The notes under the pieces are model-generated. The model was not told the origin of the DNA. It did no database searches and saw only the letters and a program-made list of their open reading frames with translations. A stretch of DNA of 64,000 bases from Serripes groenlandicus (Eukaryota; Mollusca; Bivalvia; Cardiida; Cardiidae), in the NCBI GenBank assembly GCA_031761405.1, contig JASEVX010000011.1:25159238-25223237 (forward strand). The letters are read 5' to 3'. Shown here in pieces: positions 38,676 through 42,112 of the stretch; the first letter of the stretch is position 1; every line of letters starts with the position of its first letter. Made by a program: the position numbers and the translations under genes.

Positions 38676-41600
38676 ATTTCGTCGAGTATTTACTGCTAGA
38701 TCTATGTTTTAACGCTCCCCTACATTGAACAACTGTGGAAGACAGTGGTGTAGTGGTAGAGCGTCGGCCTCTCATATGTCCCGCGTTCGAATCCCATTTC
38801 GTCGAGTATTTACTGCTAGATCTATGTTTTAACGCTTCGTACCATAGGTCCCTGGTTCGAACCCCATTTCGTCGAGTATTTACTGCTAGATCTATGTTTT
38901 AATGCTTCGTACCATAGGTCCCGGGTTCGAATCCCATTTCGTCGAGTATTTGCTGTTAGATCTATGTTTTAACGCTTCGTACTATAGGTCCCGGGTTCGA
39001 ATCCCATTTCGTCGAGTATTTGCTGCTAGATCTATGTTTTAACGCTTCCCCAGATTGAACAACTTTCGAACACAGTGGTTTAGTGGTAGAGCGTCGGCCT
39101 CTCGTACCATATGTCCCGGGTACGAATCCCATTTCGTCGAGTTTGTACTGCTAGATCTATGTTTTAACGCTTCCCCAGATTGAACAACTTTCGAACACAG
39201 TGGTGTAGTGGTAGAGCGTCGGCCTCTCGTACCATAGGTCCCGGGTTCGAATCCCGTTTCGTCGAGTATTTACTGCTAGATCTATGTTTTAACGCTTTGT
39301 ACCATAGGTCCCGGGTTCGAATCCCATTTCGTCGAGTATTTACTGCTAGATCTATGTTTTAACGCTTCGTACCATAGGTCCCGGGTTCGAATCCCATTTC
39401 GTCGAGTATTTGCTGTTAGATCTATGTTTTAACGCTTCGTACTATAGGTCCCGGGTTCGAATCCCATTTCGTCGAGTATTTGCTGCTAGATCTATGTTTT
39501 AACGCTTCCCCAGATTGAACAACTTTCGAACACAGTGGTGTGGTGGTAGAGCGTCGGCCTCTCGTACCATATGTCCCGGGTACGAATCCCATTTCGTCGA
39601 GTTTGTACTGCTAGATCTATGTTTTAACGCTTCCCCAGATTGAACAACTTTCGAACACAGTGGTGTAGTGGTAGAGCGTCGGCCTCTCGTACCATAGGTC
39701 CCGGGTTCGAATCCCATTTCGTCGAGTTTGTACTGCTAGATCTATGTTTTAACGCTTCCCCAGATTGAACAACTTTCGAACACAGTGGTGTAGTGGTAGA
39801 GCGTCGGCCTCTCGTACCATATGTCCCGGGTACGAATCCCGTTTCGTCGAGTTTGTACTGCTAGATCTATGTTTTAACGCTTCCCCAGATTGAACAACTT
39901 TCGAACACAGTGGTGTAGTGGTAGAGCGTCGGCCTCTCGTACCATAGGTCCCGGGTTCGAATCCCGTTTCGTCGAGTATTTACTGCTAGATCTATGTTTT
40001 AACGCTTTGTACCATAGGTCCCGGGTTCGAATCCCATTTCGTCGAGTATTTACTGCTAGATCTATGTTTTAACGCTTCGTACCATAGGTCGCGGGTTCGA
40101 ATCCCATTTCGTCGAGTATTTGCTGTTAGATCTATGTTTTAACGCTTCGTACTATAGGTCCCGGGTTCGAATCCCATTTCGTCGAGTATTTGCTGCTAGA
40201 TCTTGAACAACTTTCGAACACAGTGGTGTAGTGGTAGAGCGTCGGCCTCTCGTACCATATGTCCCGGGTACGAATCCCGTTTCGTCGAGTTTGTACTGCT
40301 AGATCTATGTTTTAACGCTTCCCCAGATTGAACAACTTTCGAACACAGTGGTGTAGTGGTAGAGCGTCGGCCTCTCGTACCATAGGTCCCGGGTTCGAAT
40401 CCCGTTTCGTCGAGTATTTACTGCTAGATCTATGTTTTAACGCTTTGTACCATAGGTCCCGGGTTCGAATCCCATTTCGTCGAGTATTTACTGCTAGATC
40501 TATGTTTTAACGCTTCGTACCATAGGTCCCGGGTTCGAATCCCATTTCGTCGAGTATTTGCTGTTAGATCTATGTTTTAACGCTTCGTACTATAGGTCCC
40601 GGGTTCGAATCCCATTTCGTCGAGTATTTGCTGCTAGATCTATGTGTTAACGCTTCCCCAGATTGAACAACTTTCGAACACAGTGGTGTGGTGGTAGAGC
40701 GTCGGCCTCTCGTACCATATGTCCCGGGTACGAATCCCATTTCGTCGAGTTTGTACTGCTAGATCTATGTTTTAACGCTTCCCCAGATTGAACAACTTTC
40801 GAACACAGTGGTGTAGTGGTAGAGCGTCGGCCTCTCGTACCATATGTCCCGGGTACGAATCCCGTTTCGTCGAGTTTGTACTGCTAGATCTATGTTTTAA
40901 CGCTTCCCCAGATTGAACAACTTTCGAACACAGTGGTGTAGTGGTAGAGCGTCGGCCTCTCGTACCATATGTCCCGGGTACGAATCCCGTTTCGTCGAGT
41001 TTGTACTGCTAGATCTATGTTTTAACGCTTCCCCAGATTGAACAACTTTCGAACACAGTGGTGTAGTGGTAGAGCGTCGGCCTCTCGTACCATATGTCCC
41101 GGGTACGAATCCCGTTTCGTCGAGTTTGTACTGCTAGATCTATGTTTTAACGCTTCCCCAGATTGAACAACTTTCGAACACAGTGGTGTAGTGGTAGAGC
41201 GTCGGCCTCTCGTACCATATGTCCCGGGTACGAATCCCGTTTCGTCGAGTTTGTACTGCTAGATCTATGTTTTAACGCTTCCCCAGATTGAACAACTTTC
41301 GAACACAGTGGTGTAGTGGTAGAGCGTCGGCCTCTCGTACCATATGTCCCGGGTACGAATCCCGTTTCGTCGAGTTTGTACTGCTAGATCTATGTTTTAA
41401 CGCTTCCCCAGATTGAACAACTTTCGAACACAGTGGTGTAGTGGTAGAGCGTCGGCCTCTCGTACCATATGTCCCGGGTACGAATCCCGTTTCGTCGAGT
41501 TTGTACTGCTAGATCTATGTTTTAACGCTTCCCCAGATTGAACAACTTTCGAACACAGTGGTGTAGTGGTAGAGCGTCGGCCTCTCGTACCATATGTCCC

Positions 41601-41931
41601 GGGTACGAATCCCGTTTCGTCGAGTTTGTACTGCTAGATATATGTTTTAACGCTTCCCCAGATTGAACAACTTTCGAACACAGTGGTGTAGTGGTAGAGC
41701 GTCGGCCTCTCGTACCATATGTCCCGGGTACGAATCCCGTTTCGTCGAGTTTGTACTGCTAGATCTATGTTTTAACGCTTCCCCAGATTGAACAACTTTC
41801 GAACACAGTGGTGTAGTGGTAGAGCGTCGGCCTCTCGTACCATATGTCCCGGGTACGAATCCCGTTTCGTCGAGTTTGTACTGCTAGATCTATGTTTTAA
41901 CGCTTCCCCAGATTGAACAACTTTCGAACAC
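38676..41931 (+). repeat. tRNA-head satellite, 125/70-bp higher order
   Basis: The unit is the S5 head plus a spacer. A-box part GTGGTGTAGTGGTAGAGCG, B-box part GGGTTCGAATCCC, spacer CGTCGAGTTTGTACTGCTAG then CTTCCCCAGATTGAACAAC. From 40671 to 41921 the word CTTTCG recurs 11 times at exactly 125 bp. Upstream, 125-bp units alternate with blocks of three 70-bp units that lack the 55-bp A-box segment, giving 335-bp spacing (39188 to 39523, 40336 to 40671). Many units carry a B-box change, GGTTCG to GGTACG. The array grades into a complete S5 SINE. Repeated identical open frames here are artefacts. Confidence 0.93.
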
Positions 41932-42112
41932 AGTGGTGTAGTGGTAGGGCGTCGGCCTCTCGTACCATAGGTCCCGGGTTCGAATCCCGTAAGGAGGGGG
42001 ATCTGCCTTTGTAAATATTCCACACACACGGCACGAGTACTGGTTATGTTTCGAGGAAGCAGACACGAAACGTGATTAATATAAACTTTAAGCTTGTTGC
42101 GCAATCGATCCT
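41932..42112 (+). mobile_element. S5 SINE, array parent
   Basis: Head AGTGGTGTAGTGGTAGGGC ... GTCCCGGGTTCGAATCCCGT, then S5 body CACGAGTACTGGTTATGTTT, GAGGAAGCAGACACG and AAGCTTGTTGCGCAATCGAT. It is the only unit of the tract with a body, and its B-box is intact. Confidence 0.82.

What the first reader, a model, noticed from the sequence alone, without database searches (positions are those of the whole stretch)
38676..42112. SINE tRNA head turned into a higher-order satellite
The head of an S5 SINE plus a spacer forms 125-bp units, with a 70-bp deletion form lacking the A-box arranged in triplets (335-bp steps). The array ends in the only complete S5 element, so the SINE is the likely seed. 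Eleven heads sit at exactly 125 bp, indicating recent homogenisation.
Basis: partly seen in the sequence, partly recalled or inferred. Interest (0 to 1): 0.78.

Follow-up and report, generated by a model that had tools for sequence, protein, structure and literature searches.

The report
SINE-seeded tandem array, one locus
A small mobile element that landed in an intron of an animal Wnt gene had its front part, plus a bit of neighbouring DNA, copied head to tail about thirty times at that one place, a clear example of an already known way for a jumping element to turn into a tandem repeat.

Summary
The array is real. Window 38677-41989 holds 32 head-to-tail units (18 of 125 bp, 12 of 70, one of 120, one of 103). 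The 70-bp units share one 55-bp deletion that removes the A box, and form four triplets inside a roughly 460-bp higher-order repeat.

The seed claim is supported. S5 is dispersed in this 1.76-Gb genome, and 10 of 20 fetched copies have target-site duplications. All 31 spacer matches in the assembly lie at this locus. The outermost unit keeps the exact S5 consensus 5' end.

Corrections: this is a single-locus array, not a genome-wide satellite. The higher-order period is about 460 bp; 335 bp is a head-to-head step in 2 of 4 cases. S5 here is not the only complete copy (48199-47984 is complete). The array lies in a 40.6-kb intron of a Wnt gene.

SINE-derived satellites are in print for squamates and a limpet, so this is a new member of a known kind. 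Transcription and function are untested. A genome-wide search for other S5-head arrays did not complete.

The parts
38677..41989 (+). tandem array of 32 units (18 x 125, 12 x 70, 1 x 120, 1 x 103 bp)
38677..38796 (+). u1, left-edge unit (120 bp, lacks 5 bp of the head); its head, from 38734, keeps the S5 consensus start TGTGGAAGACAG; 11 differences from the canonical 125-bp unit
38677..39131 (+). higher-order block H1 (455 bp): u1 + three 70-bp units + one 125-bp unit; 95.6-96.0% identical to H2-H4
39132..39591 (+). higher-order block H2 (460 bp): 125 + 70 + 70 + 70 + 125
   Evidence: 99.8% to H4
39592..39841 (+). two 125-bp units (u11, u12) between blocks
39842..40279 (+). higher-order block H3 (438 bp; its last unit has a 22-bp deletion)
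   Evidence: 99.3% to H2 and to H4
40280..40739 (+). higher-order block H4 (460 bp)
40740..41864 (+). nine 125-bp units u23-u31, eight of them identical, one with one substitution; the youngest-looking part
40740..40796 (+). example of the 57-bp spacer (5' flank of the original S5 insertion; found only at this locus in the assembly)
   Evidence: query 40740-40803
41922..42131 (+). terminal S5 element: head 41922-41989 with A box at 41934 and B box, body and tail 41990 to about 42131; no target-site duplication recognised
47984..48199 (-). second complete S5 copy with exact 14-bp target-site duplication (47970-47983 and 48200-48213)
11995..12181 (+). diverged S5 copy
37118..37279 (-). diverged, 5'-damaged S5 copy

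Best explanation
A single-locus SINE-derived tandem array. An S5 SINE was retroposed into single-copy DNA inside a long Wnt intron. A later DNA-level duplication joined the end of its tRNA-like head to a point 57 bp upstream of its start, making a 125-bp unit of flank plus head. One unit then lost 55 bp (rest of the spacer, start of the head, A box); three such 70-bp units became fixed in a 460-bp block, and the block and single units were multiplied by unequal exchange, slippage or conversion. The S5 body at the right end and the least homogenised, S5-like unit at the left end are remnants of the founder. No function need be assumed. Shown: the layout, the S5 family, the single locus, the order of states. 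Inferred: the duplication mechanism and the order of the steps.
For: Unit layout and variants. Of 78 matches to the terminal S5 region, 39 lie in the array and 39 are dispersed; 33 of those 39 begin at query position 76-78, where S5 starts and the spacer ends (40 of 2890 candidates scored). The spacer query gives 31 matches, all at C113:25197914-25201165, with 2 of 2 candidates scored. In 20 of the 39 dispersed copies, own flanks share a word of 8 or more bases in 10 of 20, against 4 of 380 for swapped flanks. Left-edge unit u1 has 0 differences from the S5 consensus in the first 9 bases; the other 19 A-box-bearing heads all share the same 3 changes. Blocks H2-H4 are 99.3-99.8% identical and H1 95.6-96.0%, the usual picture of a less homogenised array edge. 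S5 copies in the window are 66-78% identical to the terminal one, older than the divergence inside the array (at most 11 of 120 aligned positions between u1 and the canonical unit). 70-bp units at the same place in different triplets are more alike (mean 98.8%, 18 pairs) than neighbours in one triplet (95.5%, 12 pairs), so the triplet was copied as a whole. The first junction (AATCCC / ATTTCG) shows about 1 bp of overlap and the 55-bp deletion 2 bp (read by eye).
Against: The terminal S5 has no recognisable target-site duplication (P 0.37-0.72 for three flank choices), so its own insertion is inferred from the family. The terminal head carries the array's three leader changes, so it is not a pristine founder. 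u1 also carries derived changes and a 5-bp loss, so it is not one either. The assembly's copy number was not checked against reads.
Confidence: 0.9

Rival explanations
1. The array came first and S5 heads were derived from it: the SINE picked up its promoter head from a pre-existing satellite.
For: The last S5 is physically part of the array and shares the array's derived leader.
Against: S5 copies occur on many contigs without the spacer, with target-site duplications, and are far more diverged from one another than the array units are. The spacer occurs only here.
Confidence: 0.02
2. The units were spread as RNA: tandem S5 transcripts were reverse-transcribed into this locus, or SINEs inserted repeatedly one beside another.
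For: SINE multimers are known (PMC10702118, Discussion). Each full head keeps A- and B-box-like sequences.
Against: The unit contains single-copy flanking DNA, lacks the S5 body and 3' tail between units, and joins at the same base each time. 30 of 32 units contain TTTT in the spacer, a likely Pol III stop, so read-through tandem RNA is unlikely.
Confidence: 0.03
3. The array has been kept because it does something: the B-box units bind TFIIIC and act as an architectural or regulatory element in the Wnt intron, or intact heads make short Pol III RNAs.
For: 17 of 32 units have a perfect B box and 12 of these lack any A box, a layout like extra-TFIIIC sites; TFIIIC binding to B boxes of SINEs near genes is reported in mouse (PMC3744447, passages). 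5 of 32 have both boxes perfect. The array lies in a Wnt intron.
Against: The commonest unit (GGTACG form, 14 of 32) has a damaged B box, and this is the form that spread most recently. No tRNA fold is recognised. The box states are explained by descent from a few mutations. No expression, chromatin or comparative data.
Confidence: 0.04

Closest known systems
SINE-derived satellites (sSat1-3) of squamate reptiles (Vassetzky et al. 2023, PMC10702118; outline, Background, Results parts 1-2 of 3 and Discussion read)
   Same: Tandem unit made of part of a tRNA-derived SINE, shorter than the SINE; an end unit that runs on to the SINE terminus; extra nucleotides of unknown origin in some units (about 30 nt in sSat3Gja2); alternating sub-variants in long loci; many small one-off loci besides the abundant ones.
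   Different: Other SINE family and an organism outside squamates; one locus for this unit here against up to thousands; the unit contains 57 bp that can be shown to be single-copy flank; fixed triplets of an A-box-less deletion unit inside a 460-bp block.
PcH-sat of the limpet Patella caerulea (PMC11121367; abstract and Discussion read)
   Same: Satellite containing a piece of a SINE, in a mollusc.
   Different: 179-bp monomer containing SINE sequence without boxes A and B, about 10% of the genome, pericentromeric; here a tRNA head, one locus, in an intron.
tRNA-head tandem families of amphibians: Hydromantes Hy/Pol III and Xenopus satellite 1 (table of PMC9659126, passages; criticised as inconclusive in the Background of PMC10702118)
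   Same: Tandem units said to contain the tRNA-related region of a SINE.
   Different: Abundant families with a disputed link to a SINE; here the SINE body is still attached and the family is shown.

Membership tests
tRNA-derived SINE (for S5) | A box and B box at tRNA-like spacing in the 5' head | tested here: met
   Terminal S5: perfect A and B boxes; in 50 mononucleotide shuffles of the rest of the window no such pair arose, against 3 observed there.
tRNA-derived SINE (for S5) | Dispersed copies with common 5' start and 3' end | tested here: met
   39 dispersed matches, 33 starting within 76-78 of the query; 20 aligned to a common start and AAGTTTAAA-type end.
tRNA-derived SINE (for S5) | Target-site duplications | tested here: met
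   14-bp exact at 48 kb, 0 of 1000 shuffles as good; 10 of 20 genome copies with 8 or more shared bases, 4 of 380 in the swapped control. Not found for the terminal S5 itself.
tRNA-derived SINE (for S5) | Head recognisable as a tRNA by a tRNA model | tested here: not met
   ARAGORN finds only the tRNA-Glu at 56556-56628; Rfam finds no tRNA match in 41700-42200 or 47940-48240 up to E = 5.
SINE-derived satellite (sSat) | Tandem units derived from part of a SINE, at least four middle units | tested here: met
   32 units.
SINE-derived satellite (sSat) | A terminal unit extends to the SINE terminus | tested here: met
   u32 runs on into S5 body and tail to about 42131.
SINE-derived satellite (sSat) | Same unit at several or many loci | tested here: not met
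   Spacer search: 31 matches, one locus. The tool warns that very common words are skipped.
SINE-derived satellite (sSat) | Subtelomeric preference | tested here: inconclusive
   Locus lies 25.2 Mb into a 66.1-Mb contig; the contig's relation to the chromosome ends is unknown.
Higher-order repeat | Multi-unit blocks more alike between blocks than units within a block | tested here: met
   H2-H4 99.3-99.8%; 70-bp units 98.8% at the same place against 95.5% within a triplet. Only four blocks, one of them an edge copy, with 250 bp between H2 and H3.
Classical satellite DNA family | Abundant, many arrays, heterochromatic | tested here: not met
   One array of 3.3 kb, in a Wnt intron. Chromatin state not tested.

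The most novel reading that the evidence does not exclude
The array is a domesticated cluster of B-box-only TFIIIC sites: the A-box-less triplets carry 12 perfect B boxes without a Pol III start, and the array acts as an architectural element in the 40.6-kb Wnt intron.
Probability: 0.04. Interest if true: 0.7.

Novelty: new member of a known kind. Interest (0 to 1): 0.3.

Why it matters
The locus shows the stages of SINE-to-tandem-repeat conversion side by side: the element with its body, the founder-like edge unit, the deletion unit, the higher-order blocks and the freshest identical run. A single-copy spacer proves that the unit arose at one insertion site. PMC10702118 called earlier SINE-satellite examples inconclusive and left open whether such satellites are restricted to squamates. 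Together with three further SINE-derived tandem stretches within 124 kb of the same chromosome, this suggests that the process is frequent in this genome too; how frequent was not measured.

Tried and rejected
Chance or simple repeat: rejected, TRF and exact unit decomposition agree. S5 as an invention of the array: rejected. Target-site duplication around the whole array or the terminal S5: not found. Hidden inverted repeats in the array region: none at 14 bp or more. tRNA or other known RNA in the array: none (one sub-threshold snoCD11 match on the other strand, 16.4 bits against a cut-off of 60, treated as chance). Coding function: no Pfam hit for the open frame 41775-42110 (-) or for 47991-48323 (+) over the second S5. 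Relatives in prokaryote-genome and viral contigs: S5 head 20-mer and S5 body pattern gave 0 in both, as expected for an animal SINE; the core of the other common SINE gave 0 in viral contigs. An idea that u2 keeps an ancestral base was dropped when 20 S5 copies showed otherwise. The box tally at the end used a faulty expression and was replaced; the mismatch counts at the end were off by one and were replaced. Species not identified: 'mollusc' is only my recollection of the common SINE's core and was not tested. No protein search and no structure job was run.

Full report
What is there. Window 38677-41989 consists of 32 head-to-tail units: 18 of 125 bp, 12 of 70 bp, one of 120 bp and one of 103 bp. 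Tandem Repeats Finder reports the same stretch with periods 70, 125, 438 and 460. A full unit is a 57-bp spacer and a 68-bp tRNA-like head.

Higher-order order. All twelve 70-bp units share one 55-bp deletion (unit positions 41-95: the end of the spacer, the start of the head and the A box). They occur as four triplets. Triplet and neighbouring 125-bp units form blocks H1 (38677-39131), H2 (39132-39591), H3 (39842-40279, with a 22-bp deletion) and H4 (40280-40739). H2, H3 and H4 are 99.3-99.8% identical; H1 at the edge is 95.6-96.0% identical to them. 70-bp units at the same place in different blocks are more alike (mean 98.8%, 18 pairs) than units within one triplet (mean 95.5%, 12 pairs). 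So the block was copied as a unit of about 460 bp; triplet-to-triplet distances are 460, 710 and 438, and the head-to-head steps across triplets are 330, 335, 313 and 335. To the right stand nine 125-bp units, u23-u31, of which eight are identical and one differs by one base. Recent duplication and recent homogenisation cannot be told apart here.

The SINE. Three further S5 copies lie in the window, 66-78% identical to the terminal one. The copy at 48199-47984 (-) is complete and is flanked by an exact 14-bp repeat; 0 of 1000 dinucleotide shuffles did as well. The genome search was answered for two queries. With the terminal S5 region (genome of 1,758,966,737 bases in 1739 contigs; 40 of 2890 candidates scored) it gave 78 matches: 39 in this array and 39 dispersed on other contigs or elsewhere on C113. 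Of the 39 dispersed, 33 begin at query position 76-78, that is window 41925-41927, where the SINE begins and the spacer ends; the six others begin at 48, 65, 68, 81, 84 and 95. I fetched the first 20 of the 39 and aligned them: they share a start (TGTGGAAGACAG) and an end (AAGTTTAAAC-type). In 10 of 20, the two flanks share a word of at least 8 bases, against 4 of 380 with swapped flanks. The terminal S5 itself shows no duplication of this kind. No tRNA model recognises the head; it is tRNA-like by its A and B boxes only.

Which came first. The spacer alone (window 40740-40803) was searched in the whole assembly: 31 matches, all in C113:25197914-25201165, this array, with both first-look candidates scored. 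The tool warns that very common words are skipped, so this shows that no other copy was found rather than proving there is none. The unit thus contains SINE head plus local DNA, which only a duplication at an S5 insertion site can make. In the first nine bases of the head, u1 at the left edge has no difference from the S5 consensus, while the other 19 A-box-bearing heads, u32 included, share the same three changes. So the founder's start survives at the outer edge and its body at the other edge, and the interior is derived. Against a simple picture: u1 also has derived changes and a 5-bp loss, and u32 has been drawn into the array's variant.

Promoter boxes. A perfect A box is present in 18 of 32 units, a perfect B box in 17 of 32, both in 5 of 32 (u6, u11, u13, u18, u32). 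The GGTACG form of the B box is present in 14 of 32. The twelve 70-bp units have B only. 30 of 32 units have TTTT in the spacer, and the terminal S5 has none from 41932 to 42131, so a transcript from an array head would probably stop in the next spacer. That is inference; no expression data were available.

Surroundings. Pfam finds Wnt exons on the + strand at 14289-14585 (E = 3.1e-17) and 31686-32081 (E = 2.4e-34); the second matches solved Wnt proteins. Read-through Pfam scans of the + strand from 32082 to the window's end found no further Wnt match. Beyond the window, the next Wnt motif (CKCHGVSGSC) stands at window coordinate 72689. A GTAAGT donor at 32064 and a TTTCCAG acceptor before 72662 give an intron of about 40.6 kb that holds the array. 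The exon limits are read from the sequence and were not checked with transcripts.

The same process nearby. Three other SINE stretches within the 124 kb examined (window plus 60 kb) carry tandem duplications: a copy of the other common SINE at 18839-19355 with a 116-bp segment three times; a third SINE-like element at 55586-55931 with a 40-bp and a 51-bp segment duplicated; and, in the same Wnt intron, L059:4509-5151, 8.1 copies of 79 bp from the core of the common SINE, whose last unit runs on into the SINE's tail.

What is known. SINE-derived satellites are described for squamates (PMC10702118; outline, Background, Results parts 1-2 of 3 and Discussion read) with the same anatomy: part of a SINE, sometimes with extra DNA of unknown origin, and an end unit that reaches the SINE terminus. 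Those authors left open whether such satellites are restricted to squamates. In a limpet, PcH-sat contains a SINE piece (PMC11121367, abstract and Discussion). A review lists amphibian tandem families said to come from tRNA-related regions (PMC9659126, passages), which the squamate paper calls inconclusive. Text searches listed no paper that I recognised as describing this array or an A-box-less triplet structure; they cover open-licence papers only, and I read none but those named. The finding is therefore a new, unusually readable member of a known kind.

Verdict. Array, triplets and seed confirmed; period, uniqueness of S5 and 'satellite' corrected; function unlikely and untested.

Noticed in passing
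L059:4509-5151 (about window coordinates 68509-69151, beyond the window end): A second SINE-derived tandem array in the same Wnt intron: 8.1 copies of a 79-bp piece of the other common SINE, with the last unit running on into the SINE tail.
   Followed up: partly
18839-19355: A copy of the common SINE with an internal 116-bp segment in three copies.
   Followed up: partly
55586-55931: A SINE-like element with two internal duplications, 40 bp x 2.2 and 51 bp x 2.
   Followed up: partly
14289-14585 and 31686-32063 (+); next exon at window coordinate 72662 in L059: Exons of a Wnt gene; the array lies in its roughly 40.6-kb intron.
   Followed up: yes
3157-4394: Tandem arrays of a 121/245-bp unit whose two halves (3157-3395 and 3395-4394) look like reverse complements of each other (consensus units).
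   Followed up: no
5274-8989, 22962-24103, 29384-30607, 53194-54252: Several other minisatellite arrays with units of about 31-45 bp, one (29384-30607, 37 bp x 33.1) with 95% matches.
   Followed up: no
56556-56628 (-): The only tRNA gene that ARAGORN and Rfam report in the window, tRNA-Glu (TTC).
   Followed up: no
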